A DNA stretch of 64,000 nt. It comes from Platanthera guangdongensis. Lineage: Eukaryota > Streptophyta > Magnoliopsida > Asparagales > Orchidaceae. The stretch is taken from assembly GCA_039583875.1 (NCBI GenBank), contig CM077151.1, positions 116,950,609-117,014,608 of the forward strand. The letters are read 5' to 3'. Positions 1 through 60,791 of the stretch are shown here, piece after piece. A program made the position numbers and the translations under genes. The notes beneath the pieces are model-generated. The model did no database searches. It had not been told where the DNA came from and saw only the letters and a list, made by a program, of their open reading frames with translations. The stretch's first letter is position 1. Every line of letters starts with the position of its first letter.

Positions 1-1238
1 TCGACGATAGTTGAGCTCAGATCGACGATCTCTGTTGCTGTCTAAGTCCAAATCGCTGAGCTCAGTTCGACGATAGCAGAGCTCAGTTCGACGTTTTTCT
101 GATGAGTTAAAGGATTTTCAAGATTCAAATTCAGGACAGTTAAGGAGTTATTCAGCAATTAATTCAGAAGATTTTCTAGCCGTTTTCATTTATTCTGGAC
201 CAAGTTTCAAGGGATTATCAAGGAATGTTTCTTTGGACTTTCCCCCAAAAGACAATTGCAATTAAGGAAGTCAATTAATGACAGGCTAACGGCTATTCTT
301 GACAGAGGATCATTTTCTATTCAGAACCGGGGAATAAAACTCAAGATTTTTGAATCTAACAGATAACACAGACAGCACAGACAAGAAGAACAAAAAAAAT
401 ATTCTCTGGAACAACATCTTTCTCAACACCAACTGTTCACAAGAAAAAGTGTTGTAGACATTCTCTGTCTAAAAGAATTCATACAAGAACACACAACAAA
501 AGGAGATCAACAATCTCAAATCTTCAGATCTCTGTTGATTCAAGTGTTCAAGGCCAACATCATTCAAAGACTCTAGACACCTAACATTTCAGCTGTTGCT
601 GAAATCATCAATTGCTGGAGATCAAATTTCTTAAGGCCTATCACCCTACATCAAAGCTTCATTTCCTGAACATCTCAAGAACTCAGGGGGAGCTTTGACA
701 ACACCAAATCCACATAGTCTTCTCAACTGCTCTGAGAAAGAGAAGACTTGCTTCACTCTCTCATCCCCATCTCTGTAAAGGGTTTTTCAAACTCCCTTCA
801 AAAGTTTGTACTTGGTTTTTGAGCACCTTGTCAAAAGCTCATTGGTGGCAAGACACCTGATCAAAAAATCTGATTTGGTTTTTGAGCACCTTATCAAAAG
901 CTCATTGGTGCCCATGATACCTGATGAACTCATCCTGCAGTGGATTCCTACCTAGGGTGGTAGAAGAGTGGATGTACCCAAGTTTAGGGGAACCACTATA
1001 GCTCCTTGTGTCTTTTGGCTTGCTTGTCTTTATTTTTGTTTCTGGCTGTGATTATTCTGTGATTAGTTAGGATCTGTGATTAGTTTCATTTGTAGGTTGT
1101 AATTAGTTATCTCCTGTGCTTAGGTTTATTATTTGCTTCCCTGTTCACTCAGATTACAACAACTGTTGTAAAAAGTTTTTAAGCACCATACTCTATTCAC
1201 CCTCCCTCTAGAGTATTTCAGATCTAGCTGCACTTTCA
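1..1238 (+). repeat. Element A 5' LTR (left part outside window)
   Basis: It matches the 3' LTR from about 10645 onward, jumping at 10705 to 19147, so roughly 360 bp of its left end is missing. It ends in GCACTTTCA just before the PBS. The first 95 bases are the end of a CGTCGA palindrome array. An AATAAAAC stretch near 331-338 is the only TATA-like candidate and is weak. No coding sequence. Confidence 0.92.
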
Positions 1239-1369: not shown

Positions 1370-3386
1370 ATGGCCCAAAACAAAGATTATGCTAGCACCA
1401 GACCTACAGTGTGCAATCTGTCTAAGTTTGCACTTTGGAAAGCAAGGATTAGATTATACATGAATTCTATTGACGAGGATATTTTTAATTCTGTTTTGAC
1501 AGTTTGTCCAAGACCTCCAGAGAACACAAGTACAAATGCTGTTCCACCTCCATCAGGAACAGATGCTGATATCAAGAAGTGGAAGGTTGCAGATGCAAAG
1601 GCTATGAACATCTTAGCCCAGACCATGTCTGATGACATCTTTCAAAAGGTGGCTCAATGTAATTCAACAAAGGAAATCTGGGATAAACTCTCTGAAATAG
1701 TCTCAGGCTCAGCTGATGAAAGAAAGGACAGGAGATCCCACCTCATATCTCAATATGAGAATTTCAAGAAGGGAGAAGCTGAATCAGTTGGAGATATGTA
1801 CAATAGACTCAGTCTGATAGTCAGTGAACTCAGGACTTTGGATAAGGAGATATCATTGACTGAACTTAATGACAAAAATCCTAATGTGCTTCCCAAGCAC
1901 TTGGGACTCAAGAATCTGGCCAATCAAGGATGCCAGAAGTCTGAAGGAGATCACCACATAAGCTCTTTTGGGCAAGCTCAAATCTTATGAGCTGCTCATT
2001 AAAAATAGAGAAGAAGAGCAGAAGGCTGCCTCACCAGCCACAAGAAAAGAGAAGACAATAGTTTTCAAAGCAACTGAAGATCAGCCTGAAGACAAAGTCA
2101 CAGGCAATGATGAACTGCTCAGTCTATTGGCCAAAAGATTTTACAAAATGGACAGAAAGGACTTCAGAAGGAGATCATACAAAGAGCATGATAAGCCAAG
2201 GTATGATAAGTCTAACAATAAAGAAATTGTTTGCTTTGGTTGTAGGAAACCAGGGCACATTGTACCTGACTGTCCAGCGAACAAAAATAAGGACAGAAGG
2301 GACAAGAAAGAAAGGAGAAAGGAGAAAGACTTCAAGAAGAATGGCAATGGAAAACCCTCCTCAAGCAAGAACAAACACACAAGGAAGGGATTTGTTGCTG
2401 AATCCTGGAGTGAAACTGAAGAGGAATCAGAAGCCTCATCCAGCTCCAGTGATGATGAAGATGATGCAGAAGAGATGGAGTTCTGTATGAGGGCAATCAA
2501 TGCCTCTCAACATAATTCAAATGAAGAAGAGTCAGAGTCAGACTCAGAGACTCAACTTGAAGAGGACCAGGTAATCAGTTCTTTTGACTTCAATTCAGAG
2601 GACTTTAAATCTGAGTTTAAAGCATTATGTTTAGACTTACTAAAATCTGAGAAAGAAATTATCTCTCTCAGAAATCATTTATCTGAACATAATATCTTAA
2701 AGTCAGAAAATCTCAAACTCTCTAAGGAGTTGGAGTGTTGTATGGAGCAGATAGCTTCACTGAAAGGTGAGCTATCAGAGGCCAAGAAGCTTGAAGAATC
2801 CCTTAATGGGAGAAGTATCAAGCTGATGGACATCACAAGCACAGTGAACTCCATATTCAATAGTATACTGGGCTTGGGTGCTTCATCCAGCCAACCTATA
2901 GTCCTAACAACCCCAATCAAGTTCATTTCTAACAAAGGGAAGGGAGTTGTAGAGGTAGCTAGGAAAAATTCTGATCTGCCTAAGAAAACTAAGTTTCAGC
3001 AGAAATCGTCGAACGGAGCTCGACGATCGCCGAACGCAAATCGACGATCTCAGGTAAAATCATCGAACTCAGGTCGACGATCTCTAATTCCTGAACTCTG
3101 CCACAATCGACCGTCGAACGGAGCTCGACGATCTGACCCAAGATCGTCGAACGCAGCTCCACGATCGTCGAACAGAGATCAGAGCTCTGGAAATTCTTTC
3201 TAGGGCAAATCAAAATCCAATCCTAAGGGTCCTTCATCCCAAATCTTTAACCCTTATACTGAATGGATAATACCTCCAAGGAGATATCATCCTGAAGGTT
3301 ATAAGAGTCAACCTAGGATGTCTTTCATTTCTGAGTTTAAAGGTTATCAACCTAGGCCCAAGGTAAACTGGGTCAAAAACAAATGA
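1370..3386 (+). pseudogene. gag: Element A gag (capsid-nucleocapsid), broken
   Basis: Gag forms the virus-like particle and binds the element RNA. The start is the ATG at 1370 (MAQNKDYAST), the same as in element C. The N-terminal 200 residues resemble the copia gag/UBN2 domain (FALWKARIRLYM, EIWDKLSEI). A CCHC zinc knuckle (C-X2-C-X4-H-X4-C, CFGCRKPGHIVPDC) lies at 2233-2274, followed by Lys-rich, acidic/Ser-rich and coiled-coil-like segments. The last part (3004-3180) is encoded by a CGTCGA array and reads as Arg-Arg-Ser repeats such as SSNGARRS. Breaks: one extra A near 1873 (five A's against four in element C), TAA at 1959-1961 and TAG at 3201-3203. The gag frame then ends at TGA 3384-3386, just before pol, which is in the +1 frame. 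Confidence 0.9.
3004..3180 (+). repeat. CGTCGA palindrome array inside gag of element A
   Basis: Repeated ATCGTCGAACGGAGCTCGAC-type units form short inverted repeats and are translated in the gag frame as SNGARRS-like peptides. The same motif occurs in this element's LTRs and in the spacer before ORF3. Confidence 0.85.
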
Positions 3387-6555: not shown

Positions 6556-7053
6556 GTTCCAAGATTTTAAAACTTTAAAAATTGTCCAAGACTAGGCAAA
6601 CATCTTGATTTTTCTTAGTGTCTAGAGTGTATTTCTGGTCTCTGAACTGCGCTCGACGATTTTCCCCCAGATCGTCGAACGGAGATCGACGATTTCCGAA
6701 ATCGTCGACCTGAGTTCAGCACTTCTCAGATAGTCTGAACTATCTCTTCCGGTCAACGATCGTCGAACGGCGCTCGATGATTTTGTTCCCTGAACTATCG
6801 TCGAACGGAGCTCGACGCTCTCCAATATCGTCGAACGGAGATCGACGATATTGAAGACCTTTCAGATTCCTTTAGAAGCCCCAATCATCGAACTGAGTTC
6901 AACGATCTTTCCTTTTCTGCGTCGAACCCTAATATAAAATTCATTTTTCGCCGTCGTTCTCATTTTACGCTTTCGATTTCTCTGCAAAAATTCTCTTTCC
7001 CTCCAAACATCTCTACACTTGGTCGTTTTGTTTGTTCATTTTTGCAGGTAACC
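6556..7053 (+). promoter_or_regulatory. Spacer between pol and ORF3: CGTCGA array, TATA-like box, leader and acceptor-like site (element A)
   Basis: About 500 bp without an ORF. From 6648 to 6915 it is packed with CGTCGA/TCGACG inverted repeats. TATAAAAT follows at 6933-6940, then a pyrimidine-rich leader (TTCTCTTTCCCTCC) and TTTTTGCAG|GTAACC directly before the ORF3 ATG at 7054. Elements C and D keep the TATA-like box, leader and TTGCAG site in the same order. The arrangement looks like a promoter for a separate ORF3 transcript, or a splice acceptor that would place ORF3 on a subgenomic RNA. Confidence 0.55.
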
Positions 7054-11036: not shown

Positions 11037-11255
11037 AAATTCGACGAGAATCACCAAGTGATTCTCGCCGAATCGACGAGAATCACTTGTGATTCCCGCC
11101 GAACCAGTGGTCAAGCAGCCCATGTATAAAGTAAAATTCGTTGAGAATCGACAAGTGATTCGACGAGAATCACAAACGATTCTCGACGAATCGTCGAGAA
11201 TCACTTGGTGATTCTCGCCGATTCGTCGAGAAACGTCTGCGATTCTCGCCGATTT
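11037..11255 (+). repeat. Inverted-repeat array in element B LTR
   Basis: Back-to-back palindromes: GAGAATCAC-caa-GTGATTCTC, GAGAATCAC-tt-GTGATTCCC, and GATTCTCGACGAATCGTCGA. It lies directly upstream of the TATA box. The copy at about 17940-18155 in the 3' LTR is nearly identical. Confidence 0.85.
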
Positions 11256-12242: not shown

Positions 12243-12254
12243 TGGTATCAGAGC
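12243..12254 (+). other. Primer-binding site of element B
   Basis: TGGTATCAGAGC lies two bases after the LTR and matches the complement of the initiator tRNA-Met 3' end. Confidence 0.92.
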
Positions 12255-12314
12255 GAGGTTACTCTTCAAAAAGGTTAACACATTGAGTGGAATCCTGCCA
12301 CCAGTGTCAGAAGC

Positions 12315-17349: not shown

Positions 17350-17594
17350 TCATTATTTTATAGCTGGTCACTGTGTCTTAAGAACGTTTAATGATTATTA
17401 CTGTCATATGAACAATTCTGAATTATATGTGAATATATTTCTCTTGGTATATATATATATTCTTGAATGTGTGAATGACTCAAGTCTTGTTCTGATTGAA
17501 TATATTCCCTTGTGTTGCATATTTAATTTTTAAATGCTATAATTATTATTTGATAGGTGTTATTCATCTTAGCTAGTAGGGTTTTGGCTTCGTC

Positions 17595-17608
17595 AAATAG
17601 GGGGAGAT
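17595..17608 (+). other. Polypurine tract of element B
   Basis: AAATAGGGGGAGAT directly precedes the 3' LTR. It is the same 14 bases as the PPT of element A. The 245 bases between ORF3 and this site are AT-rich and empty. Confidence 0.88.
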
Positions 17609-19141
17609 TGTTGGGTATTGTATCCACGATTACCTGGATTTGAGGAAGCCCCCTGTCAAGCTAAGATGAATTCACAATGTATTTGATAAACTTTTTCAAG
17701 TTGTACTTGCAGTTTCTCCACGCTAAGTGCACACCAATGTCAGGGTGCAGTAGGTCAATATACACGGGTCTGCACGACGTAATCCCTCGTTGAGCAGATC
17801 AGTGTGTTGGCCTATGTGTACTCTCTCTATTGGAGTGCACTTACTTTCAAGTACAGGGTCGTTCATATGCAAGAGAAGACAAGGAGCATGGAGGATCAAG
17901 GAGCAGCTCCTAGGTGGAAGACGAAAAATCGTCCAAGGCAAATTCGACGAGAATCACCAAGTGATTCTCGCCGAATCGACGAGAATCACTTGTGATTCCC
18001 GCCGAACCAGTGGTCAAGCAGCCCATGTATAAAGTAAAATTCGTTGAGAATCGACAAGTGATTCGACGAGAATCACAAACGATTCTCGACGAATCGTCGA
18101 GAATCACTTGGTGATTCTCGCCGATTCGTCGAGAATCGTCTGCGATTCTCGCCGATTTTGACTTGGCGTTTTCTCAGAATGCTGCTGGACCGGATTCTGC
18201 TTCTGGACTTGTTTGAACCGGATTTTGGGGATTTCTTTTGTGGGTCCCACAACGGTCAAATGTGCTGTATCTACAGGGTATAAATACATGGGTATTTTGA
18301 ACAGTAAAGCACGGAGAAAAAGAAAAAGGAACCGAGTCGCAACAAAACCCTAAATCCGCGACTCATCTCCGCCGCCGCCGTCGCGCTCGGGAACGTCCGT
18401 CGCCGCCACTGATCGATCTTCTTCCCGATCTCCGGCGACAGTAGCTTAGCAAGGCTTGAGTCTCACGCGTCTATCCAGAGATCCTTTGTCTCTCGATTTG
18501 TTGATCGGAAACACTTCCCATCCGAATCGATCGAGACGACCGATCCTCGTGTGACCGTTGGTAGACCGAGCTTGCTTCGCAACGAAGTTTGGATCTCCAA
18601 GTTCAGCAGCTGCTCTTCATCGTAGCCGCCGATCCCGAAACTAGCCGCCGCTCGTGTGCCGCCGTCGGTTCCGGGGAAATCCTCTCCAAGAGAGATCAAG
18701 GTCGTAGACTCTTCATCGACTTCAAGAACACGTCGTCGAACAAAGAGGAACACCGTAGTCTCCAAGAGAAGTTTGTATCACGTGTACATTCTACATTTAT
18801 TTTATTGTAAAGGAACTTTTGTTCCGTGTTGTAAGGGTTGGGTGCAACCCGTTTTGTGGGAGTGTTGACTCTCACGTGTGGAAGGGCTCCTTCCGTTAGT
18901 GCAGGGATTGGATTTCAATCCCGTTGGAGAAGTGACCGAGTCGTCCCTTGTTGGGGAGATAGGTCGTAGGGGGAAAGTGGATGTACCCAAGTCGGGGAAC
19001 CACTATAAATTTGCTGTGTATTCTGTGTGCTGTGGTTTTTGTTTTTATTGTGCAGGTACATCCGTAAATTCCGCAAAAGAATCACACGTCACCTATTCCC
19101 CCCCCCATAGGTGCACATAGTTGACACTAGTTGGACTTTCA
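17609..19141 (+). repeat. Element B 3' LTR
   Basis: Near-identical to the 5' LTR, with the TATA box at 18279 and palindromes at 17940-18155. The differences I could see are single substitutions and a shorter C-run. It ends TTGGACTTTCA and is followed by the duplicated target gctga (19142-19146). Confidence 0.95.
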
Positions 19142-22375: not shown

Positions 22376-23049
22376 TGACTCCTTAAACGACACGTTTATC
22401 ATGGAGTCTTCTCCGGTTCGTATGCAACATCACCAATCCAGACCAACCTGTCCAGATGGGCTTCACACAACATTCCTATTCCGTACTCTAATTCTGGATC
22501 TATATGCCAACAATGGGGATTTCATGAATCCACCCAAAATCAGCCACCTCTTAGTGGGGGAATCACAAACATATGCCAAAAAGGAAGCCTTCACATGGCT
22601 AGGAAGAAAAGTTGTTACCCTTGAAGCCCGCTTTGGTGTCATGAAGTTCCTAGCTGGCTAGAAAGAGCGTTTCCTCCGCAAAATTAACCTCGGATCACTG
22701 ATGGACACTCACCAGCTCCACCACCGAAAAGCCCCTCTTCTTCTTCTCCGTCTTCCTTTCCCTTTCTCTCTCTAAACTTATATAAAGATGAAGGCAATAA
22801 TAAAATGAGAATACGTTCTCTGTTTTCGACCTTAAGGAAGCAGGAAAGAAGTGCAGCCCTTGGATCCAAGCTGAGAAAAATGGACGGCTACGAAAAATCG
22901 GGAAAACCGATTTCCGCGTCCGACACGCCCTGTGACACGCCCGTGTCATAGGCCATGTCGCTAAGCGGTGCTCAACCCGCCTTATCCCAAAATAGGTCAC
23001 TGCCACGGGACACGCCCCATGTCAGCCAGGTCACGCTCGTGACACAAAT

Positions 23050-23340
23050 CTGCGCTCGACGATCTGCGTTCGACGATTAGGCAGCGATCGTCGAGCTCAC
23101 CAGCGATCGTCGAGCCCGCCAGCAATTGTCAAACAGCGCGTTCGACGATTTCCGTTTGACGATCAGGCAGCGATCGTCGAATTGGCCCAGCGCTTGACGA
23201 TTGGCCCAGCATTCGACGATCTCCGTTCGACGATTCCGCGCGTTCGATGATTTCCATAGCGTTCGACGATTTCCGTTCGACGATTTGCCAACCCACGGAG
23301 CCTTTTCTAAATCGTCGAGCTCAATTCGTTGAACACAACA
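23050..23340 (+). repeat. CGTCGA palindrome array in gypsy LTR
   Basis: Many TTCGACGATT, GATCGTCGAG and GTTCGACGATTTCC units, the same core motif as in the copia elements of this window but with different spacer words (GGCAGC, GGCCCAGC). Confidence 0.85.
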
Positions 23341-23463
23341 TTTTGTCGAGATGACGCCGAACCCGAGTGGGACACGCCCTCTGTCATGCCCGTGCTCCAG
23401 GGCATGACCACCAAAAACTTTCCGTCGAACGAATTTTACCTGCTGAAAAATTGGGCTGTTACA

Positions 23464-23820
23464 GACCGTTAGTCAAAAAGACTAAGTCATTTCCTCCGCA
23501 CCTCGCCCCGCAACTCCTAGGCACCAGGCGGGAGGACGAAGTGGAGGACAACAAGGGGTAAAACAAGGAAGCAGGTGACAATGGAACTATACTATCATGT
23601 ATATATATCAATATCTCTATTCTAGCAGTTTTATATTTATAGTGCAGGAAAGTAAAAGAACTGAACAGGAACAAGTATGTGCAGTAAATAAACAGTACTG
23701 GAAGTAAGCTGAGTAAAGACGATAAGTAAAGTAAACTACCACTACTATCACAGAAGTACCTTAACTTATATGAATGCCCATACAAACAGAAGCCTTTTAC
23801 TTGAGTATATCCCAGTATAA
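23464..23820. other. Unassigned interval between element E and element F
   Basis: About 350 bp with no recognisable coding motif. A short frame near the left (KKTKSFPPHLAPQLLG) resembles nothing I can name. It may be part of F ahead of its recognisable pol sequence, or an older insertion. Confidence 0.5.
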
Positions 23821-25007
23821 GACGGACCAAAAGTGATCTTTGGAGGGTCAGACATGGGACAACAAAAGGTTATGGTATGATTTCCAACTGTGTAGTCTCT
23901 TTCACAAACGTTGCTTATGTTGAAGTATTACACCAAAATATGATAAGCATAAGTCAGCTATATGATAATGGATACATTATCGAGTTCTGTAAGGACAAGT
24001 GCTTGATAAAATCGTCTGCAAATCTGGAGATGATATTAACAGACACTCGGAGCAGAAATATTTTCTGTTTAATTTTCTTGGCATAGAAAATTCAACCCTA
24101 GTTTATTTTATGGCTAAAAATAGTACGTCTCTTTGTGACCAATAACACAAGAGATTAGAACATATTAATTTCAAAACTATAAATATGATATTTTCTCACA
24201 ACTTATTCCATGATGCCCCCAACCTTAAGTACCTTAAAGAGAGTCCACGTCACTCCTGTCAAATATGTAAGCAGACACGGGCTACCTTCAAGGGTATTAC
24301 TAAAAAAGATTCTTCACGAAGTTTATACTTACTTCATATAGACTTATTCGGTACTATTCCTATTCACAGCTTAGGAGGTAAGGTCTACAGGTTAGTAATT
24401 GATGAGGACTACTCGTATTTTACTTGGGTGTTCTTTTTGAAACACAAGTCAGACACCTTTGAGTCTTTCACCAATTTTGTCCGCAAATTCAAAATGAGTT
24501 GGACTGCTCAATGGTCAAAATCAGAAGTGACCACGAAACAGAGTTTTAGTCTAGTGCCATGATAAAATTTTGTGAAATTCAAGGAATCTTTCATGAGTTT
24601 TCCTCCCCGCGCACTCAATAGCAAAATGAAGTTACTGAGAGAAGGAAAAGAACCCTAGTTGAAGCATGTACAACTATGATGAATGACGCTTCACTTCCGG
24701 AGTACTTCTGCACTGAAGCAATCAATATAACATGTCACATGCAAAATAGAGCACTTATCAACAAAATCTATCGTAAGACCCCCTATGAGCTATTGAAGTG
24801 CAGGAAACTGACTGTGTCCTATTTTAGAATATTTGGAAGTTAATACTTTGTACTTAATAATGAGAAGTATTGCAGCACAAAGTTTAGTGAAAAATGTTTT
24901 GAAGGTATTTTTGTAGGATATAGTAGCCATAGTAAGGCATATACGATTTTTAATAAGGAAACTCTGGTGGTAGAAGAGTCATTAAATGTTATATTAGATG
25001 AGACAAG
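23821..25007 (+). pseudogene. pol: Element F pol, first part (pre-integrase and integrase), degraded
   Basis: Pieces in several frames read KVIFGGSDMGQQK, NVAYVEVLHQNMISISQL, SPRHSCQICKQTR, HIDLFGTIPIHSLGGK, TERRKRTLVEACTTMM and KTPYELLKCRK. Together they follow the order of copia GAG-pre-integrase, integrase core and integrase C-terminus. Numerous stops and frameshifts show an old copy. Words differ from A, C and D at many positions, so F is another lineage. It is interrupted by element G just after VEESLNVILDETS; the last five bases, acaag (25003-25007), are the target site of G. Confidence 0.85.
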
Positions 25008-28000
25008 TGTAACATCCCATTTCCAACTAGACCCCTAGGAGTGGTTTTGCCCATGACTAGGTCATGGCAAACCCTAGGAAGCCAGGAATGGGCCAAGGGA
25101 GATCAAGGGCCTCTCCAATTGATTACAAAGGCTGAATACATTCCCCCTCATCAGTTTTGAGGAGTTTAATAGCCATGGCCAGCCACCCAAGGTGGCTGAA
25201 TTTAATTCCTCCAATAGGGAAGAGAGAGAAAGAAGAAAAAGAAGGTCATTCATGGTGGGGAAGGTGAATCACCCCTCCATTCTTCACCAATTAATTAGTA
25301 TTCATCTCCCCTATCTGTTTTGAGGAGTTTCCAAATGAATTGGGACAAAGGGGAGGTGAATTTCCATGGATTTTCTCCAAAACCGAAATTCCAATTCATG
25401 ACCATTAATGGATTTGAAGCCATGACCCTCCCTTCCCCCCCCCATTTGATGCTTTTAAAAGCTTCCCTGGGCCAAGAGAAATCGTTTCCACCCTTCACCT
25501 AAAGAAACCGGGCGGTTTGGTAGTGAAGTTGCAAGCATCGGAAAGCTCCACCACCGGCCATGGCGCACCACCACCACACTCGACGACAAGCTCGGTTAAA
25601 GGTCCTCCTCAACTCCTTCTTCCGTGGGTAGATCTTAGGAATCGTTTAGGACAAGAATCAGACTCAATTGAGCCGATCCAAGTTTTCATTTCCATGGTTT
25701 TTCCAAAAAAATGGTGGTCGGGTTCGCCGGAAACCACCCCTCCGGCGGCCATGCCGCCGCCCGGCGATAGCCCCCACCTCAACGAAGGTGGTGGCGGTGG
25801 TGGCCGGCCAGGGAGGTGGCCGTGTGGCCGGGAAATGCTCTTGGAATAAGCTCCAGGTTCGGCCAATCATGGCCCTTGGCTGGAGGAAGAAGATGACCAG
25901 GAGCCCCACGATTTGCTTTAAGATCCGTGCCGATCATTTATTTTATTAAGTTTAGATTTCTGAATTTATGTCCTGTAAACTAGGCTATTTTAAAATAAAT
26001 ATTAAAAATACTTAGGCCCACCAAGTGGGAAAATCGACAATATGAAAGTTGTAGCCCTATGGGTTTACTTTAATTCAAAATTGATTTGGACCAATTTGGC
26101 CAAATGGTTGGACCAGGGCATCCAATTTGGTGGGACCTGTACCTAGGGCTAACCTGAGATTCAAATGGATGCCCACCCTTCATCCCTTGTCCAAATGACC
26201 TGAGAATTTGGCAGGGAGTCTACCATAGCTATACCTAGGGGCAGTCCAAAAATGAGAATTTTTGGAGAAAATATTTCTATAGTTTTTATAAAAATTTAAT
26301 AATCCATAAATAAATTAAATAGGTGTCCTAAACATCTCCAAACCCTCCCAAATTTTGGTGAGTGGTCCCTGTCATCACTAACTAGCTTTGAACAAAATAT
26401 CAGCTCAATTGGATTGGTTTTAGTTAGTGAATCACCAAACCATAGTTTGACCTTAGGGTGGTCACCTCCCATCAACAGAGGCTGAGGTTTTGGGCACTGA
26501 CTTGGCATGGCCAATGTCACCCTCCTAGGGAAAATGGGAGGATTTAGGCTTGAGTTACCCTAGGGTTCAACCTCAAACCCTAAGGAATGACGTTTGGGGG
26601 TTGTGAAGGACATGGGGGCACATGCCCTTGTATGGCCTTGGAAACTTAGTAGAATTGAGGGTAATGTAACCTAAGTTCTCTGGTAGGAACCTTAGAGGAG
26701 TTGGAGCAAGGTAGACACCTCAAAACCCTAACCCTAGTTTTAGGGTAGGAGCAAAAATTTGAAGACTCAGCCACTAAACCTTAACCAAAAGTTATGGAAC
26801 TTGGGTAGAGTAGGTTTTAGGCCATCTAGAACCCCTGGTAATTTCTATAGAATTTTATGGATTTTATTACTGGTACTTCATTTGTTAATTACCAAAAGTC
26901 CCAAAATGATTTTTGATTTTCTTATGGTTAATCTGTGCATTTGAATCTAGTGAAACTTGGTCAGCATATCTTAAAGCCTAAGTGAATATCCCTGAATTTT
27001 ATTATAATTTTTACTTGAGTTTACTTAGTACTTCCTTCACAAGTTTTGGAAAGGGGCTTAGAAGAATAAAATTAATTAATGATGTTTTATCTGTTGAAAA
27101 ATCATAAGACTTAGGTTTTGATGTTTCCAGGCCAAAAAGTACTTGTAGAAATTTATTTATAATTTTTAGAAGTCTGTTTTCAGAACTTCCTTTACAAGCC
27201 ATATTTTTGAGAATTGGATAGTAATTAATTTAGGGAATAAGTCTTTCGAAAAAAATTATGAAACTTTACTTAGAGGTTTTATGTGCCCTTACAATCATCC
27301 TGGATGTTTCTCTGAATTTTTGGAAGTATTTTTGTTGTACATCCCCTTTTAATGATTTATTTTGTAATAAATTGGAAATAAAATTTATGGGCTTAAACCT
27401 TGCTGAAAAATTGGGAGATTCTGGATTTTTAGATGATTATTCATTTTGCATTTAACATAAATTTAGTGGAATTTTATCTTGTCTAAAACTTGTACTTCAT
27501 GTTCAAACTTGGAACTTCTGTTTATTAGAATAAATAAATAAATTATCAGTTAAATTATGAAAATTAGGAAATTTTGGATTCAAGCTACAAATGCCAATAT
27601 AGTACTCCAATAATTATTATATGAGTACTGGATGATCATTTGGTATACTTCCCATTTTACGGGTCATATAGCTTAAGTGGTCTGCATTTAGTAAAACTGC
27701 AAGAAATCATTCGGGTTATGAATTAGAGCACATGTGTTGGGTTTTGTTGGTTTGCTGGAAAGGATAAATAGAAATAGGTGCATTATTGGAAGATAAAGTG
27801 AGTAGGATGTTGTTTTGTCTAGGGTTTAGAGGCGCTCGGGTCCGACGAAAGATCGTCCTCCCCAAGGTGAGGTAGAGTCAAGTCACCTTAGGATTAGCCT
27901 ATCGTAACATGAGAAAGTAATGGGTAAGGGGATCAACCAATAACATAAATAAGTACCTTGCGAAAGGGAACGCTGGGCATAATCCCAACATAGTTCCTAG

Positions 28001-28314
28001 TGCCCCTTGAGAGCCCTTCACAGGGAATACCAGGGGCAGTCCTGGGTTAACGTAAACTGTTTTAACAAGCTGAAAAGAGTAACTTAGTAATTAGGGTTGC
28101 ACCTTTCAGAAACACTGATAGCACCGGAAGTTAGCTGGGAGCTTCGGCTCGGATGGTTAAAAGACGGACTTTGGGTCCGGGGAGCTACGGCTCGATTGTT
28201 TGAGATGGACGTGTTGGTCCGGGGAGCTTCGACTCGGTTTTTCATTACGCTAAATTTGCATGTGCATAAAAGAAAGAAAAAAAACGGGGGGGGGGGGGGG
28301 GGGGGGGTCTTACA
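25008..28314 (+). repeat. Element G 5' LTR
   Basis: A long LTR with several regions: a leader-like part containing CCGCCGCCCGGCG near 25740-25800, a long AT-rich part (26000-27800), three partly repeated words around GGGGAGCTTCGGCTCG near 28130-28240, and a run of about 22 G's (28286-28307) before the end. Short ORFs such as 25517-25849 are shared with the other LTR but resemble no protein I know, and I do not call them genes. Confidence 0.9.
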
Positions 28315-29376
28315 AGTGGTATCAGAGGGAGGTTCGATCGAAAAGTAGCAGTCCACAACCCTGGGTCACCCCCGCACAAGTTTAGTTTGGGGACAAACTA
28401 AGCAGCGGAAGCAGTGGTGTGCCCATAGGGGAAATCACATTTAAAAGTCCACTCTATATTGTCCATTCTTTCCATTTGTACGCTATCTAACAATTGGAAT
28501 CCTTCTTTGTAGCCTGCGGCAAACCCTGCCCCTAGCAGGGAGCACTTTAGGCTGCAAAGACCTCATCTTATAATTCTTTAGTCAATGAGTTAGACTCAAC
28601 CCACTAGGATACATGACTAACCATGATAACTTATAGTATGCCCTAGTTTGAAATATTCTTTTGGTATGAACTTGGTTAAGCTAAGGAGATACCTAATGAA
28701 AATAAAGGAGGAGTATAACACGAGAATGGCTACATAAGCCATAATAAACTCAGGTAGCCCTACGGTCCCTATCAAGGATTACTCAAACCGGAAGGACTGC
28801 TTTAAGGAGAATTGATACCAATAATCCATTAACAGAATGGTAGAAGACACATAGTCTCAACGCTCATGCCAGTAACAAGATTACCTGGAGACCACCATCA
28901 CGACAAACACCGAAGGTCGGATAGGAATTCAAGTTCAGAAGAGACCCAGTTGGGATTGGGAACATTTTGACAAGGATAAGGTTGTCGTAAATATGACTCA
29001 GAGGGTTTAAAATATGGAGTATATCAACAGATTCCGGTTGGAACCCCAAGTCAAAGATTGATGCCCTAGGGATTGTGCACCCAGCTAGGACGGATATAAC
29101 ATGGTAATATCAAAGATACTCAGCCCAAGGCAGGTAGAGGCTTATCTTTTGTTTATTGGGGGCTTATCTTTTGTTTATTGGGGGCTTATCTTTTGTTTAT
29201 TGGGATCTTGGCTCATCAATTAGGCGAATTGGGTATAGACTTAAGTTTCCCTCAAAACTTAATTTAGCAAACCTGGCATCGTGATGGGATGTTACAAGTT
29301 TCTTTTCTACGGTAGGAATTCCCGTAGGCTTAACCTTGATTTTGGGGACGAAATCTTTGTTTTGTTTATTGGGATT
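28315..29376 (+). other. Element G internal region, non-coding
   Basis: It begins AGTGGTATCAGAGGGAGG, a PBS for initiator tRNA-Met at 28317-28328. No frame with gag or pol motifs exists on either strand. The right part has a triple 25-bp repeat and TTGGGGACGAAATC (29341-29354), then TTTGTTTATTGGGAT up to the 3' LTR. Confidence 0.85.
29130..29204 (+). repeat. 25-bp tandem repeat, three units
   Basis: GGCTTATCTTTTGTTTATTG plus a G-run is repeated three times without change. A fourth related word, TTTGTTTATTGGGAT, lies at 29361-29375 against the 3' LTR. Confidence 0.85.
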
Positions 29377-34588: not shown

Positions 34589-34639
34589 AGAAGCCCAGGA
34601 AAGCAAAAGATCTCTCAGGTTCTACTTCAGAAAAGAAAT

Positions 34640-39305: not shown

Positions 39306-39529
39306 GCAAACAATCTGTCCAAAGTACATATGCCACGCCCGTGTACTGATGGTCATGCCCGTGACCTGGGCGTGACCCATCAAATGCCAGTGAAATCAAA
39401 GATTTTTGAAGAGAAAAGCCTGACACGCCCGGCCATACGCCCGTGTCAATCCTACACGGGGCGTGACCAAGCCCCTGTCCATCCCGCTCGACGATTTCAA
39501 CTCGACGTTCGTCGAATCAAGAGGGACAC
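39306..39529. repeat. Sequence J, left part: ACACGCCCGTGT-type palindromes
   Basis: Dense near-palindromic words CACGCCCGTGT, GACACGCCCGG, CATGCCCGTGACC and ACACGGGGCGTGACC, ending with a short CGTCGA patch at 39485-39515. It is the left flank of element C, and J continues at 52221 after the duplicated target gacac. Probably the LTR of an unidentified element. Confidence 0.65.
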
Positions 39530-41533
39530 TGTTGGAACACCCTATTACTGATTTGGGCAAGGATCACTATGTCTCTTAGGAAACCTGTTTTGACCTCATT
39601 GTATAGATCTAAAGGTCAATTAGAATTGAATATAAGGGTTAGTAGTTAGGTTTGGAAGCTGCCCTCAAGACCAGGTTTTTCAGTTTTGGAGACTAAGTCA
39701 TTTCGTCGAGCTCAGTACGACGAATCGTCGAACTCCATTCGACGATCGTTGAGATCACTTCGACGGATCGTCGAACTCCATTCGATGATCTCTGAGCTCA
39801 ACTTCAACAAGTCGTCGAACTCCATTCGACGATCTTCGAGCTCAGATCGACGATCTTGACTCTAGTTTGATTCTCTATCTCTGAGCTCAGATCGACGATA
39901 GTTGAGCTCAGATCGACGATCTCTGTTTCTGTCTAAGTCCAAATCTCTGAGCTCAGTTCAATGATAGTGGAACTCAGTAGGATGTTTCTCTGAAGAGTTC
40001 AATGATTTTTCAAGATTCAAATTCAGACATTTGTGGAATTATTCTCAACATTTAATTCAGAGATCTTGTAGCCGTTTTCATTTAATCTGGAGCAAGTTTC
40101 AAGGAATTTTCAAGAAATGTTTTATTGGACTTTCCTCCAGAAGACAAATACAATTAAGGAAGTCATTTATTGACATGCTAACGGCTATCTGGGACAGTGG
40201 ATCATTTCTATTCAGTCAGACAAAATAAATAAAAGATTAGATTGTTCATTCAAAAAAAAATAGAAGAACAAGAAGTCAGACACATATTCTCTGCAACAAC
40301 AACTCTTACAACAACAATTACCCAAGAGAAAGAAAGAGTGTTGCAGACTTTCTCATTCTCAAAGATTCATACAAGAACACTCATCACAAAAGGAGATCAA
40401 TCAACTGCTCAGTTCGATGTTTCTCTGAAGAGTTCAATGATTTTTCAAGATTCAAATTCAGACAGTTGTGGAATTATTCTCAGCATTTAATTCAGAGATC
40501 TTGTAGCCGTTTTCATTTAATTTGGAGTAAGTTTCAAGGAATTTTCAAGAAATGTTTTATTGGACTTTCCTCTAGAAGACAAATACAATTAAGGAAGTCA
40601 TTTATTGACATGCTAACGGCTATCTTGGACAGTGGATCATTTCTATTCAGTCAGACAAAAGAAATAAAAGATTAAATTGTTCATTCAAAAAAAATAGAAG
40701 AACAAGAAGTCAGACACATATTCTCTGCAACAACAACTCTTACAACAATAATTACACAAGAGAAAGAAAGAGAGTTGCAGACATTCTCAGTCACAAAGAT
40801 TCATACAAGAACACTCATCACAAAAGGAGATCAATCAACTGAAACTTTCAGATCTCTCTTGATTCAAGTGTTCAAAGGCCATCATCATTCAAGACTCCAG
40901 ACACCTCACATTTCAGTTGTTGCTAAAATCATCATTTGCTGGAGATCAAATCATTTGAAGGCCTATCACCCTACTGCAAAGCTTCACTTCCTGAACAAAT
41001 CAAGATTTCAGGGGGAGCTTTGACAACATCCACAATCTTCTCTCTGATTGTTGACAGAGAAGATCATCTCATCCCTCTCTCTCTCTCTCTCTCTCTCTAC
41101 TGTAAAGGGTTTTTCAAACTACCTTCAAAAGTTTGTGATTGGTTTCTGAGACCTTATCAAAACTCAGTGGTGGCAAGACACCTGATCAAAAAATCTGGTT
41201 TGGTTTTTGAGCACCTTATCAAAAGCTCATTGGTGCCCAGGACACCTGATCAACTCATCCTGCAGTGGATTCCTACCTAGGGTGGTAGAAGAGTGGATGT
41301 ACCCAGGTTGATTGGGGAACCACTATAGCTCCTTGTGTCTTCTGGTTGCTTATTTTTCTTTTGTTTCTGGCTGTGATTTGTGGTTGCTTTTTGTTTAGAT
41401 AATTGTTGTGTTTATTTAATTATTTGCTTCCCTGTTCACTTAAAAATACAACAACTGTTGTAAAAAGTTTTTAGCAAGCACCATACTCTATTCACCCCCC
41501 TCTAGAGTATATCAGATCTAACTTGCACTTTCA
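39530..41533 (+). repeat. Element C 5' LTR
   Basis: TGTTGGAACACC...GCACTTTCA, 2,004 bp. CGTCGA array at about 39700-39970. A tandem duplication makes it about 400 bp longer than the A and D LTRs. A CT microsatellite is at 41077-41098. Confidence 0.93.
39981..40848 (+). repeat. 445-bp tandem duplication within element C 5' LTR
   Basis: GATGTTTCTCTGAAGAGTTC begins at 39981 and again at 40426, each copy ending near GAGATCAATCAACTG. The same duplication is in the 3' LTR (50669 and 51115). A and D have a single copy, so it arose in the lineage before C inserted. Confidence 0.9.
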
Positions 41534-41666: not shown

Positions 41667-43665
41667 ATGGCCCAAAATAAAGATTATGCTAGCACTAGAC
41701 CTCTAGTGTGCAATCTATCAAAGTTTGCACTTTGGAAGGCAAGGATTAGACTATACATGAACTCTATTGAAGAGGACATGTTCAATTCTGTTTTGACAGT
41801 GTGTCCAAGACCTCCAGAGAACACAAGTACAAATACTGTTCCACCTCCCTCAGGAACAGATGCTGACATCAAGAAATGGAAAGTTGCAGATACAAAAGCT
41901 ATGAACATTCTAGCCCAGACTATGTCTGATGAAATTTTCCCAAAGGTAGTTGAATGCAACTCAGCAAAGGAGATCGAGTATAAGCTATCTAAAATAGTCT
42001 CAGGATCTGCTGATGAGAGAAAAGACAGAAGATCTCACCTCATAACCCAGTATGAGAATTTCAAGAAAGGAGAAGCTGAGTCAGTAGCAGACATGTATAA
42101 TAAACTCAGTCTGATAGTCAATGAACTGAAAACTTTGGATAAAGAGATCTCATTGACTGAGCTAAATGATAAAATCCTAATGTACTTCCCAAGCACTTGG
42201 GATTCAAGGATCTGGCCAATCAAGGATTCCAGAAGTCTAAATGAGATCACAACAGAAGCTCTCTTGGGCATGCTCAAGTCTTATGAGCTGCTCATTAAAA
42301 ATAGAGAAGAAGAGCAGAAGGCTGCCTCACTAGCCACAAGAAAGGAAAAGTCAATAGCTTTCAAATCCACTGAAGATCAGCCTGAAGACAAGGTCACAGG
42401 CAATGATGAGCTGCTCAGTCTACTGGCCAAAAGATTTTATAAAATGGCCAGAAAGGATTTCAGGAAAAGATCATACAAAGAGCATGACAAGCCAAGGTAT
42501 GATAAATCAAATAACAAAGAGATTAACTGTTTTGGTTGCAGGAAACCGGGCCACATTGTGCCTGACTGTCCAGAGAACAAAAACAAGGACATGAAAGAAA
42601 GAAGAAAAGACAAGGACTTCAAGAAGAATAGCATTGACAAACCCTCCTCAAGCAAGAACAAACACACAAGGAAGGGATTTGTTGCTGAATCTTGGAGTGA
42701 GACAGAAGAAGAATCTGAAGCTTCATCCAGCTCAAGTGATGATGAGGATGATGCTGAAGAAAAGGAATTCTGCATGATGGCTATCAATGCCTCACAACAC
42801 AATTCTGATGCAGAAGAGTCAGAATCTGAATCAGAGACTCAACCTGAAGAGGATCAGGTAATAGACTCATCTGATTTCAACTCTGAGGACTTCAAGTATG
42901 AATTTAAAGCACTATGTTTAGACTTATTAAAATCTGAGAAGGAAATCATCTCTCTCAGAAATCAATTATCTGAATATAGTACCTTAAAATCAGAAAATCT
43001 CAAACTCTCTGAGGAGTTGGAGTGATGTAGGGAGCAGATAGCTTCACAGAAAAGTGAGATATCAGAGGCCAAGAAGCTTGAAGAATCCCTCAATGGGTGA
43101 AGTATCAAGCTAATGGACATTGCAAGCATAGTGAACTCAAGATTCAACAGTACACTGGGCTTGGGTGCTTCATCCAGCCAACCTATAGTACTAACAACCC
43201 CAATTAAGTTTATCTCTGATAAAGACAAGGGAGTTGTAGAGGTAGCTAGGAAAATTTCTGACTTACTTAAGAAAACCAAGTTTCAACAGACATCGTCGAA
43301 CGGAGCTAGACGATCGTTGAATGCAGATCGACGATCTCAGGCAAAATTGTCGAACTCAGGTCGACGATCTCTAAACCCTGAACTCTGCCACAGTCGATCT
43401 TCGAATGGAGCTCAATGATCTGACCCAAGATCGTCGAACGCAGCTCAACGATCATCGAGCAGAGATCAGAGATTTGAAAACTTAGGGTAAATCAAATTCC
43501 AATCCTAAGGGTCCTTCATCCAGATTTACCCCATATACTGAATGGATAATACCTCAAAGGAGATATCATCCTGAAGGTTATAAGAGTCAACCAGGGATGT
43601 CATTTATTTCTGAATTTAAAGGTTATCAACTTAGGCCCAAGGTAAACAGGGTCAAAAACAAGTAA
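41667..43665 (+). pseudogene. gag: Element C gag, broken near its end
   Basis: Open from the ATG at 41667 (MAQNKDYAST) for 452 residues, which covers the UBN2-like domain, the CCHC knuckle (CFGCRKPGHIVPDC, from 42528), the acidic Ser-rich segment and a coiled-coil-like part. Stops follow at 43023-43025, 43098-43100 and 43416-43418, and small indels shift the frame near 43480. The CGTCGA array (43290-43455) again lies in the C-terminal coding part, giving SSNGARR-like peptides. The final frame ends at TAA 43663-43665 inside the 40-nt GT...AG segment. The N-terminal three quarters is the best-preserved A-family gag in the window. Confidence 0.9.
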
Positions 43666-50217: not shown

Positions 50218-52215
50218 TGTTGGAACACCCTATTACTGATTTGGGGAAGGATCACTATGTCTCTTAGGAAACCTGTTTTGACCTCATTGTATAGATCTAA
50301 AGGTCAATTAGCATTGAGTCTAAGGGTTAGTAGTTAGGTTTGGAAGCTGCCCTCAAGATCAGGTTTTTCAGTTTTGGAGACTAAGTTATTTCGTCGAGCT
50401 CAGTATGACGAATCATCGAACTCCATTCGACGATCGTTGAGCTCACTTTGACGGATCGTCGAACTCCATTCGACGATCTCTGAGCTCAACTTCAACAAGT
50501 CGTCGAACTCCATTCGACGATCTTCGAGCTCAGATCGACGATCTTGACTCCAGTTTGATTCTCTATCTCTGAGCTCAGTTCGACGATAGTTGAGCTCAGA
50601 TCGACGATCTCTGTTTCTTTCTAAGTCCAAATCTCTGAGCTCAGTTCAACGATAGTGGAACTCAGTAGGATGTTTCTCTGAAGAGTTCAATGATTTTTCA
50701 AGATTCAAATTCAGACAGTTGTGGAATTATTCTCAACATTTAATTTAGAGATCTTGTAGCCGTTTTCATTTAATCTGGAGCAAGTTTCAAGGAATTTTCA
50801 AGAAATGTTTTATTGGACTTTCCTCCAGAAGACAAATACAATTAAGGAAGTCATTTATTGACATGCTAACGGCTATCTGGGACAGTGGATCATTTCTATT
50901 CAGTCAGACAAAAGAAATAAAAGATTAGATTGTTCATTCAAAAAAAAAATAGAAGAACAAGAAGTCAGACACATATTCTCTGCAACAACAACTCTTACAA
51001 CAACAATTACCCAAGAGAAAGAAAGAGTGTTGCAGACATTCTCATTCTCAAAGATTCATACAAGAACACTCATCACAAAAGGAGATCAATCAACTGCTCA
51101 ATTCGATGTTTCTCTGAAGAGTTCAATGATTTTTCAAGATTCAAATTCAGACAGTTGTGGAATTATTCTCAGCATTTAATTCAGAGATCTTGTAGCCGTT
51201 TTCATTTAATCTGGAGCAAGTTTCAAGGAATTTTCAAGAAATGTTTTATTTGACTTTCCTCCAGAAGACAAATACAATTAAGGAAGTCATTTATTGACAT
51301 GCTAATGGCTATCTTGGACAGTGGATCATTTCTATTCAGTCAGACAAAAGAAATAAAAGATTAGATTGTTCATTCAAAAAAAATAGAAGAACAAGAAGTC
51401 AGACACATATTCTCTGCAACAACAACTCTTACAACAATAATTACACAATAGAAATAAAGAGAGTTGCAGACATTCTCAGTCACAAAGATTCATACAAGAA
51501 CACTCATCACAAAAGGAGATCAATCAACTGAAACTTTCAGATCTCTCTTGATTCAAGTGTTCAAAGGCCATCATCATTCAAGACTCCAGACACCTCACAT
51601 TTCAGTTGTTGCTGAAATCATCATTTGCTGGAGATCAAATCATTTGAAGGCCTATCACCCTACTGCAAAGCTTCACTTCCTGAACAAATCAAGATTTCAG
51701 GGGGAGCTTTGACAACATCCACAATCTTCTCTCTGATTGTTGACAGAGAAGATCATCTTATCCCTCTCTCTCTCTCTCTGCTGTAAAGGGTTTTTCAAAC
51801 TCCCTTCAAAAGTTTGTGATTGGTTTCTGAGACCTTATCAAAACTCAGTGGTGGCAAGACACCTGATCAAAAAATCTGATTTGGTTTTTGAGCACCTTAT
51901 CAAAAGCTCACTGGTGCCCAGGACACCTGATCAACTCATCCTGTAGTGGATTCCTACCTAGGGTGGTAGAAGAGTGGATGTACCCAGGATGATTGCGAAA
52001 CCACTATAGCTCCTTGTGTCTTCTGGTTGCTTGTTTTTCTTTTGTTTCTGGCTGTGATTTGTGATTGCTTTTTGTTTAGATAGTTGCTGTGTTTATTTAA
52101 TTATTTGCTTCCCTGTTCACTTAGGAATACAACAACTGTTGTAAAACGTTTTTAGCAAGCATCATACTCTATTCACCCCCCCTCTAGAGTATATCAGATC
52201 TAACTTGCACTTTCA
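50218..52215 (+). repeat. Element C 3' LTR
   Basis: 1,998 bp with the same internal duplication as the 5' copy and the CGTCGA array at 50390-50660. It ends GCACTTTCA before gacac (52216-52220). Confidence 0.93.
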
Positions 52216-55510: not shown

Positions 55511-57036
55511 TGAAAGAGCAACTAGATCTGATATACTCTAGAGGGGGGTGAATAGAGTATATGGTGCTTTAAAAACTTTTACAAACTTTTATAACAATTG
55601 TTGTAATATGTGTGAGCAGGGAAGCAAAAATAAATCTAATCACAGCACTAAGCAAAGCAAAAACTAAGCACAGAAAAATCAAGGCCAGAAACAAAAATTG
55701 AAAACAAGCAAAACCAGAAGACACAAGGAAATATAGTGGTTCCCCAAACTTGGGTACATCCACTCTTCTACCACCCTAGGTAGGAATCCACTGCAGGATG
55801 AGTTGATCAGGTGTCCTGGGCACCAATGAGCTTTTGATAAGGTGCTCAAAAACCAAAGCAGATTTTTTGATCAGGTGTCTTGCCACCAATAAGCTTTTGA
55901 CAAGGTGCTCAAAAACCAAGCTCAAACTTTTGAAGGGAGTTTGAAAAACCCTTTATAGAGTGGGGGTGAGAGAGTGATGGAAGTCTTCTCTTTCTCAAAC
56001 AACTGAGAAGACTATGTGGATTGATGTCAAAGCTTCCCCTGAATCCTTGAAATCTTCAGGAAGAAAAGCTTTGCTGAGGGTGATAGGCCTTCAAAGATTG
56101 AACTCCAGCAATAGATGATTTCAGCAAATAGCTGAAAGGTTGAATGTATGGAGTCTGGAAAATATGTTGGCCTTGAACACTTTGAAAACTAAAAGAGATC
56201 TGAAGATTTGAAAACTTGATCTCCTTGGATGTCTGTTCTTCAGAATTCTTTGAGACAGAAGATTTTTGAGAGTGTCTCTGTAGTCAGTATATCTCTCTCT
56301 ATATTGTGTGTGTTCTTCTGTGTGAGAGATTCAAAAATCCTATCTTTTATTCTCTGGTCAGAATAGAATATCATTCTCTGTCAAGTATAGCCGTTGGCCT
56401 GAATTAATTGCATCCTTAATTGCATAATCTCTTCTGGAGGAAAGTCCACAGAAACATTCCTTGAAAAATCCCTTGAAACTTGGTCTAGAATTGAATGAAA
56501 ACGGCTAGCAAATCTCTGAATTAATTGCAGAATAACTCCTAACTGATTTTGAATTTGAATTCTGGAAGTTATTTGAAATCGTCGAACTGAGCTCTGCTAT
56601 CGTCGAGCTGAGCTCAGCGATCAGGAAATCTTAAGCAGCAAAATATCGTCGATCTGAGCTCAAAGATCGTCGAACTGAGCTCAGAGATAAACATCCAAAG
56701 CATAGTCAAAATCTTCGACCTGAGCTCACCGATCGTCGAATGGAGTTCGACGATATAATGAAGTTGAGCTCAGCGATCGTCGAATGGAGTTCGACGATCT
56801 GTCGAAGTTGAGCTAGACGATCGTCGACCGGAGTTCGACGAATCGTCGTGCTGAGCTCGACGATATGACTTGGTCTTCAGACAGAGAATCCTGGTCTATC
56901 AGGGCAGCTTCCAAACCTAGACTTCTAACCCTTAGACTCAATTCTAATTGACCTATTAAGCTATACAGAAGGTCAAGCAAAGGATTCCTAGAGACATAGT
57001 GATCCTGACCCAAATTAGTAATAGGGTGTTCCAACA
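55511..57036 (-). repeat. Element D 3' LTR
   Basis: 1,526 bp, the reverse complement of TGTTGGAACACC...GCTCTTTCA. CGTCGA array at about 56575-56870. It lacks the 445-bp duplication of element C. The PPT complement ATCTCCCCCTATTT follows at 57037. Confidence 0.93.
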
Positions 57037-60293: not shown

Positions 60294-60791
60294 TGTACCT
60301 GCAAAAACTCAACTAACAAAACAACCAAGCGTAGAACTGTTTGGAGGGAAAGAAAATTCTTGCAGAGAAATCGAAAGCGCAAAAGAGAACGACGGCGAAA
60401 AATGAGTTTTATATTAGGGTTCGACGCAGAATTGGAAAGATCGTTGAACTCAGTTCGATGATCGAGGCTTCTAAAGGAATCTGACGAGACTTCAACATCG
60501 TCGATCTCCGTTCGACGATCTTGGAGAGCGTCGAGCTCCGTTCGACGATCGTTCAGAGAACAAAATCGTCGAGCACTGTTCGACGATCGTTGACCAGAAG
60601 AGATAGTTCATACTATCTGAGAGGCGCTGAGCTCAGTTCGATGATTTTTGGAAATCGTCGATCTCCGTTCGACGATCTTAGGGCAAATCGTCGAGCGCAG
60701 TTCAGTGAGCAGAAAAAAATTCTAGACACTAAGAAAAATCAGAATGTTTGCCTAGTATTGGTCAATTTTTAAGCTTTCAAAATCTTGGATA
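60294..60791 (-). promoter_or_regulatory. Element D spacer before ORF3: CGTCGA array, TATA-like box, leader and acceptor-like site
   Basis: Read on the minus strand: array (60715 to 60420), TATAAAAC (60413-60406), pyrimidine-rich leader, TTTTTGCAG|GTACA and the ATG of ORF3. Same order and similar spacing as in A. Confidence 0.6.

What the first reader, a model, noticed from the sequence alone, without database searches (positions are those of the whole stretch)
23050..23340. The same hairpin-forming CGTCGA motif is amplified in copia and gypsy LTRs
Seen: arrays with a TCGTCGA/TCGACGA core occur in the LTRs of A, C and D (copia), in the LTR of E (gypsy) and in patches of J. The LTR of B has a variant (GAGAATCAC palindromes joined by CGACGA). 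In A the units have perfect arms GATCGTCGAA and TTCGACGATC around five bases, every 43-45 bp. The linker words differ between families, so this is not simple shared descent of one LTR. Inference: independently amplified binding sites for one host factor, or a structure/siRNA source that unrelated elements converged on or exchanged. I know of no described element system with this motif.
Basis: partly seen in the sequence, partly recalled or inferred. Interest (0 to 1): 0.75.

Follow-up and report, generated by a model that had tools for sequence, protein, structure and literature searches.

The report
Shared TCGACGA arrays in retrotransposon LTRs
In this large plant genome, unrelated families of jumping genes (copia and gypsy retrotransposons) carry dense clusters of the same seven-letter DNA word in their control regions, and the word stays fixed while the DNA around it changes, as expected of docking sites for a shared DNA-binding protein.

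Summary
TCGACGA occurs 103 times in the window against 1.7 in shuffles; the 4.25-Gb genome holds 764,664 direct pairs within 30 bp. Elements A-D have Sirevirus-type (copia) LTR junctions. E is genuinely Ty3/gypsy: relatives with two array-bearing LTRs encode gypsy gag, protease, RT, RNase H and integrase.

The copia part is a new-core example of a described feature, the Sirevirus "repeated motif" boxes (PMC2829016). What goes beyond that paper is the sharing with gypsy. With cores masked, copia and gypsy arrays show no linker homology. In each lineage the core's non-CpG letters are nearly invariant while linkers diverge: 1.0% v 8.1% in 13 E loci, 0% v 11.7% in five Sirevirus insertions. A second word, GTGTCGACAC, is also found with both copia and gypsy elements.

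The shared unit is the half-site, not the hairpin: neighbour orientation is near random and folding z-scores run from -10.4 to +2.0. Best reading: independently accumulated LTR binding sites for a common trans-acting protein. The protein, its source (host or element) and its effect are unknown.

The parts
23056..23318 (-). E: 11 cores in the upstream part of a Ty3/gypsy LTR; the LTR starts at 23463 on the minus strand and the array lies 146-408 bp inside it
   Evidence: gypsy domains in relatives L025 and L026
10457..10674 (+). A: 10 cores in the 3' LTR of a Sirevirus-type copia element, convergent dimers every 44 bp followed by direct sites
1..73 (+). A: three cores in the part of its 5' LTR that lies in the window
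39703..39919 (+). C: 9 cores in the 5' LTR (LTR from about 39531, TSD GACAC)
50391..50607 (+). C: 9 cores in the 3' LTR
56579..56863 (-). D: 11 cores in the 3' LTR of a minus-strand Sirevirus-type copia element
11041..11229 (+). B: variant array (TCGACGAGAATCAC words, 6 exact cores) in the 5' LTR
   Evidence: B TSD GCTGA
17944..18132 (+). B: the same variant array in the 3' LTR (LTRs 99.4% identical)
6653..6848 (+). A: 8 cores at the 5' side of the extra ORF behind RT (stop-to-stop frame 6781-7662)
60498..60694 (-). D: 8 cores 5' of the extra ORF (58602-60308, minus strand)
3006..3171 (+). A: 7 cores near the gag-pol junction, inside the open frame 1962-3203
43293..43437 (+). C: 4 cores at the place that corresponds to A 3006-3171
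39488..39515 (.). two cores in the sequence into which C inserted; that flank groups with gypsy-type LTRs

Best explanation
Each array is a cluster of binding half-sites, core TCGACGA, in the upstream part of an LTR (about 100-550 bp inside it) and, in some Sireviruses, also ahead of the extra gene. A sequence-specific DNA-binding protein of the cell, most likely a host transcription factor, binds the half-site in either orientation; clustering raises occupancy, and bound LTRs are transcribed more (or silenced less). Copia and gypsy lineages gained and multiplied the site independently because the same protein is available to all of them. Shown: the arrays and their places, their presence in both superfamilies, unrelated linkers, near-random orientation, and conservation of the core's non-CpG letters in two unrelated lineages. 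Inferred: that a protein binds, that it is one protein and host-made, and that it activates.
For: Excess over shuffles and over a permuted word. E shown to be gypsy; further spaced-sample loci have arrays beside gypsy domains, L029 in both of its LTRs, L036 and L037 inside a TGTAACA-type LTR end. Footprint: in 13 E sequences, one per element or duplicated locus, A/T letters of the core differ in 1.0% of comparisons, linker A/T in 8.1%, linker A/T beside a CpG in 4.5%, the core being lower for 13 of 13 reference copies; in five Sirevirus insertions 0% against 11.7% (earlier versions). Slid masks reach the observed value in 0.14% (E) and 1.2% (Sirevirus) of shifts. Masked linkers separate copia from gypsy. 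Orientation near random. A second word shows the same copia-gypsy sharing.
Against: No binding, expression or methylation data were available and no factor is named. Core sequences alone cannot say whether one or several proteins are involved: positions -2 (G) and +1 (T) are shared by Sirevirus A, E and several others but not by B, L029/L030 or L036, and +1 is not conserved in the Sirevirus LTR (33 of 208 comparisons differ). Sirevirus linker A/T beside a CpG differ in only 5.0%, and the core was lower than these in 3 of 5 references. TATA-like words downstream of the array were found in B, D and E but not in C or in one LTR of L026. B and A arrays do fold significantly (z -10.4 and -5.6).
Confidence: 0.55

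Rival explanations
1. The arrays act as hairpins: folded LTR transcripts feed small RNAs (or DNA cruciforms are recognised), as proposed for maize Sirevirus palindromes.
For: A and B arrays fold far better than shuffles; L001, E and L041 moderately. In maize, palindrome-rich LTR regions are small-RNA hotspots (PMC5311732 and PMC10760457, passages seen).
Against: Neighbour orientation is near random; L001 is all-direct though its fold, helped by other palindromes, is still z -4.0; L004 folds worse than shuffles. Orthologous conservation is letter by letter at the core, down to half-sites without a partner.
Confidence: 0.13
2. The binder is encoded by the elements, VANC-like: for example the extra ORF of the Sireviruses recognises the motif to counter silencing, and gypsy elements use it in trans.
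For: Arrays lie directly 5' of the extra ORF in A and D. In Arabidopsis, VANC targets accumulate as tandem motifs and one such motif also lies in an unrelated element, AT9TSD1 (PMC5735166, passages seen).
Against: C has the ORF but no cluster ahead of it. The ORF's only Pfam similarity is sub-threshold PF20167; no DNA-binding domain was recognised. Gypsy arrays need it only in trans.
Confidence: 0.13
3. Arrays were exchanged between copia and gypsy LTRs by recombination or template switching and then rearranged.
For: The elements are nested in each other, for example C inside a gypsy-type LTR.
Against: No copia-gypsy similarity remains once cores are masked, in 27 segments at E 1e-6 or in six GTGTCGACAC segments at E 1e-3. 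Old exchange followed by replacement of linkers would escape this test.
Confidence: 0.07
4. Neutral tandem amplification of a chance word.
For: Several families show regular units: 44 bp in A, 41 bp in L002, about 34 bp in L045/L052/L053, 14 bp in L004.
Against: It predicts neither the same core in unrelated lineages nor lower divergence of core letters than of linkers at orthologous positions; spacing in E is irregular.
Confidence: 0.07

Closest known systems
Sirevirus repeated-motif (RM) boxes, Bousios et al. 2010 (PMC2829016; abstract, sections 9 and 19 and passages seen)
   Same: Palindromic motif in high copy number in the upstream half of Sirevirus LTRs, with further copies 5' of the env-like gene; CpG-containing core; letters around it diverge
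   Different: Core is TCGACGA instead of CGG-CCG; half-sites also in direct arrays; also near the gag-pol junction; also in gypsy LTRs, whereas the paper reports the motif as Sirevirus-specific among the copia elements it compared
Palindrome clusters of maize Sirevirus LTRs (Bousios et al. 2016, not held; seen only as cited in PMC5311732 and PMC10760457, passages)
   Same: Palindrome-rich cis region of the LTR; the maize word is also reported in Helitron structured regions, so sharing across superfamilies has a precedent
   Different: Different core; small-RNA mapping is known there and not here; no gypsy sharing in the passages seen
VANC target motifs of Arabidopsis VANDAL elements (Hosaka et al. 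2017, PMC5735166; passages seen; authors' name recalled)
   Same: Short motif accumulated as repeats in non-coding parts of elements, and also present in an unrelated element
   Different: DNA transposons with a known element-encoded binder; no binder is known here

Membership tests
Sirevirus (elements A, B, C, D) | conserved PPT / 3' LTR junction | tested here: met
   ATAGGGGGAGAT then TGTTGG in all four; that this is the Sirevirus sequence is recalled, the paper passages seen describe a conserved junction without letters
Sirevirus (elements A, B, C, D) | multiple PPT copies upstream of the 3' LTR | tested here: inconclusive
   one further GGGGGAGA in the linker of A, C and D and two in B; not tested against chance
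Sirevirus (elements A, B, C, D) | copia-type pol | tested here: met
   A and C: integrase and RVT_2; D by DNA alignment to A and C. B: not met, no pol domain in its two long ORFs, so B is Sirevirus-like by its ends only
Sirevirus RM boxes | palindromic motif, at least eight copies per element, in the LTR | tested here: met
   10, 9 and 11 exact cores per LTR in A, C and D, with convergent dimers; B has 6 exact cores plus variants
Sirevirus RM boxes | extra copies 5' of the env-like gene | tested here: inconclusive
   met in A and D, not in C; that the extra ORF is the env-like gene is inferred from its place
Sirevirus RM boxes | CGG-CCG core | tested here: not met
   core is TCGACGA/TCGTCGA; the paper lists one Sirevirus, Tnd-1, without CGG-CCG
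Sirevirus RM boxes | restricted to Sireviruses | tested here: not met
   E and spaced-sample gypsy LTRs carry it
Ty3/gypsy (element E) | pol order protease-RT-RNase H-integrase with gypsy-type domains | tested here: met
   in relatives L025 and L026; E's own coding part was not examined in the window
VANC-like anti-silencing targets | bound by an element-encoded protein that removes methylation | not testable with these tools
   needs binding and methylation data

The most novel reading that the evidence does not exclude
One trans-acting protein of this plant has become the common transcriptional switch of many unrelated retrotransposon lineages, copia and gypsy alike: each lineage independently evolved a dense array of its half-site TCGACGA in the upstream LTR. 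A second word, GTGTCGACAC (1.41 million close pairs genome-wide), marks a parallel switch, so that the growth of this genome ran on a few shared promoter codes.
Probability: 0.4. Interest if true: 0.8.

Novelty: new variant of a known kind. Interest (0 to 1): 0.6.

Why it matters
Which factors drive retrotransposon bursts in large plant genomes is mostly unknown (my general knowledge), and the 2010 paper left the role of the Sirevirus repeated-motif boxes open (PMC2829016, section 19). Here the candidate site is one clear 7-mer, present in hundreds of thousands of close pairs and conserved in two unrelated lineages. The binder can be fished out and tested directly, and the same assay would show whether gypsy and copia elements depend on one protein.

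Tried and rejected
Hairpin as the shared function: six arrays folded and orientation counted; not supported as the common feature. Exchange between superfamilies: masked-linker comparisons gave no copia-gypsy link; unmasked, L037 and L035 do match over 117 bp at 68%, which disappears on masking. 'E array is a copia fragment': rejected; the copia integrase and RT pieces at 24365-24663 and 33098-34317 belong to another, interrupted element. Simple composition effect: rejected by shuffles, by k-mer ranks (first of 30 seven-letter words of the same composition with two CpG, in both the window and the spaced sample; by Markov excess rank 6 to 11 of 6,605 in the sample, so other words are more in excess) and by a permuted word genome-wide. 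Helical phasing: among the first 100 listed direct pairs spacings peak at 14 and 20-22 bp; this mixes families and repeats of one family and was not pursued. Whether L045/L052/L053 (about 34-bp unit) are LTRs: not resolved; a 1.2-kb stretch farther downstream showed no long ORF and the copy search did not complete. The class of L004 is unknown. Literature for the words: TCGTCGA with retrotransposon, TCGACGA with LTR, GTGTCGACAC, TTCGACGATC with repeat, CACGGGCGTG with LTR: no listed title describes such arrays; only 20 of 47, 15 of 1,622 and 20 of 31 papers were listed. The species was not identified.

In my first attempt to file, the footprint rested on 20 E sequences; the check showed that these include LTR pairs of one element and a duplicated locus, so repeats it on 13; the result became slightly stronger.

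Full report
WHAT IS THERE. A (window start to 10705, continued 19142 to about 20321), C (about 39531-52215) and D (minus strand, from about 57038 to the window end) are related copia elements. A and C have integrase and RT of copia type; D aligns to them at the DNA level. Behind RT all three have an extra ORF with sub-threshold similarity to PF20167. B (10706-19141) sits in A's 3' LTR with TSD GCTGA; C has TSD GACAC. A, B, C and D share the junction ATAGGGGGAGAT|TGTTGG, which I know as the Sirevirus one (recalled). B has no pol domain in its long ORFs.

E IS GYPSY. A search with 22600-23800 scored 40 of 10,265 candidates and listed 52 matches; apart from the window itself and L006 none runs past query position 869. 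That puts the LTR edge near 23463, where the minus strand reads TGTAACAG. Relatives L025 and L026 each hold two LTR copies, 93% identical to each other, around gag, protease, RT, RNase H and integrase pieces in gypsy order on the minus strand. All four LTRs carry the array.

EXCESS. TCGACGA: 103 in the window, 1.69 +/- 1.13 in shuffles, largest 5. In 18 stretches of 10 kb at round-number positions fixed before seeing them (L027-L044; the other 2 of the 20 were E relatives and left out): 98 against 13.3 expected from dinucleotides, with at least one core in 17 of 18 and a cluster of four or more in 6 of 18. In that sample the word ranks 6 to 11 of 6,605 seven-mers by Markov excess, so others are more in excess, above all GTCGACA and GTGTCGA. 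Whole genome: GTTCGACGATC 83,007 + 83,986 (backward control 568 + 547) against 706 + 727 for the permuted word GTTCGATCGAC. Direct pairs TCGACGA-N0-30-TCGACGA: 382,721 + 381,943 (control 4,248 + 4,154).

ARCHITECTURE. In the Sirevirus LTRs convergent dimers with starts 14 bp apart repeat about every 44 bp, followed by direct sites. E has irregular spacing of 14-51 bp and mixed orientation. L001 has 11 of 11 and L004 13 of 15 sites in one direction. L002 has 32 sites in a 41-bp unit, behind a purine tract and TGTTGGAG. L001-L004 were picked by a pattern with two direct sites and L045-L054 by the 11-mer, so neither is a random sample. Neighbours within 37 bp: window 29 direct, 19 convergent, 18 divergent; spaced sample 19, 6, 16; L045-L054 47, 21, 24. 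RNA folding z-scores: B -10.4, A -5.6, L001 -4.0, E -2.6, L041 -2.35, L004 +2.0. The constant element is the half-site.

POSITION. Arrays lie 173-389 bp (C), 176-460 bp (D), 336-524 bp (B) and 146-408 bp (E) inside the LTR; TATA-like words follow at 671 (B), 1082 (D) and 680 (E), and none was found in C or in the right LTR of L026. Arrays also lie at the 5' side of the extra ORF in A and D but not in C, and near the gag-pol junction in A and C (the corresponding part of D is outside the window).

FOOTPRINT. The motif was defined on one copy and differences were counted among the others. In 20 E sequences A/T letters of the core differ in 1.5% of comparisons, linker A/T in 7.2%, linker A/T beside a CpG in 4.9% (core lower in 18 of 20 references), core CpG in 13.0%, linker CpG in 16.7%. 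These 20 include LTR pairs and a duplicated locus. With 13, one per element or locus: 1.0%, 8.1%, 4.5% (13 of 13), 11.9% and 16.5%. By offset T0, A3, A6 and the T after the core stand at 0.8-2.3%, other flanking positions at 7-17%. So the CpGs decay, as expected of methylated copies (inference), while the other letters are held. In the Sirevirus LTR, five sequences of four insertions (the comparison of C's two LTRs left out) give core A/T 0 of 642, linker A/T 274 of 2,063, core CpG 31 of 856, linker CpG 55 of 330, and +1 A/T 33 of 208; these comparisons repeat the same columns. With five insertions (A, C, D, L003, L051): core A/T 0% in about 26 columns, linker A/T 11.7%, linker A/T beside a CpG 5.0% (core lower in 3 of 5 references), core CpG 4.5%, linker CpG 13.3%. 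Masks slid along the array are as low as observed in 0.14% (13 E), 0.32% (20 E) and 1.2% (Sirevirus) of shifts on average. The internal arrays show a weak trend only: core A/T 2/49 against linker 13/123 (A v D) and 3/38 against 12/90 (A v C), in a pairwise and biased version.

NOT BY DESCENT OF THE ARRAY. With cores masked, 27 array segments fall into nine groups at E 1e-6: Sirevirus A/C/D with L051; B; pre-ORF with L050; gag-pol; one gypsy-type group of 13; L001; L002; L004; L045/L052/L053. No copia-gypsy link appears. The gypsy-type group is joined mostly by short matches, many of them probably at a further repeated word (GACACGGGCGTGTC-like), so its arrays may or may not be homologous to each other.

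A SECOND WORD. GTGTCGACAC followed by itself within 30 bp occurs at 1,414,958 places (the pattern is its own reverse complement, so both strand counts are the same places; backward control 58). It fills LTRs of Sirevirus-type elements (L035, behind AAATAGGGGAGAT|TGTTGG; L038, beside copia gag, integrase and RT) and stretches beside gypsy RT-integrase (L037, L039), with unrelated linkers. Whether the gypsy stretches are inside an LTR was not established.

KNOWN AND NEW. Bousios et al. 2010 describe repeated-motif boxes in 13 Sireviruses: palindromic, at least eight copies, mostly in the upper half of the LTR and 5' of the env-like gene, core CGG-CCG with one exception, absent from the classic copia elements compared, function open (PMC2829016, sections 9 and 19). 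The copia arrays here are the same kind with another core. Maize work ties such palindromes to small RNAs and reports the same word in Helitron structured regions (PMC10760457, PMC5311732, passages). VANC targets show how a short motif can accumulate as repeats and also occur in an unrelated element (PMC5735166, passages). What I did not find described, in nine searches of an open-licence library (listings partly capped), is one core shared by Sirevirus and gypsy LTRs with a footprint in both.

CONCLUSION. The evidence favours binding half-sites for a shared trans-acting protein, independently accumulated. Binding, the protein's identity and the sign of the effect remain inference.

Noticed in passing
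L035:3286-3851, L037:6102-6571, L038:6212-7109, L039:6897-7355 and 9670-9975: Arrays of the palindrome GTGTCGACAC, with 1,414,958 close pairs genome-wide, in Sirevirus-type LTRs and beside gypsy pol.
   Followed up: partly
L029:1178-1583 and 8725-9374, L048, L049, window 22936 and 52219: A third repeated word, GACACGCCCGTGTC or GACACGGGCGTGTC-like, in gypsy-type LTRs.
   Followed up: no
window about 1-23800 and G000 contig C5 near 93.85-93.89 Mb: The E region and A's LTR array have 97-99% copies in matching arrangement about 23 Mb away on the same contig, including sequence beyond the E LTR: looks like a segmental duplication.
   Followed up: no
window 10706-19141: B: LTRs 99.4% identical, Sirevirus-like ends, two long ORFs (535 and 775 aa) without pol domains; its second ORF has a 92.5% relative in L036 and a 36% relative in L035: looks like a recent non-autonomous family.
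   Followed up: partly
window 25008-32706: An LTR pair of about 3.3 kb each (94.8% identical) with only about 1 kb between, inside an interrupted copia element.
   Followed up: no
window 3006-3171: The array near the gag-pol junction of A lies inside an open frame of 413 aa and its 21-bp steps keep the frame.
   Followed up: no
window 34624-34907: A 139-bp unit duplicated in tandem, each copy with one core.
   Followed up: no
window 37605-38409: An 85-bp tandem array of about 9.5 copies without the motif.
   Followed up: no
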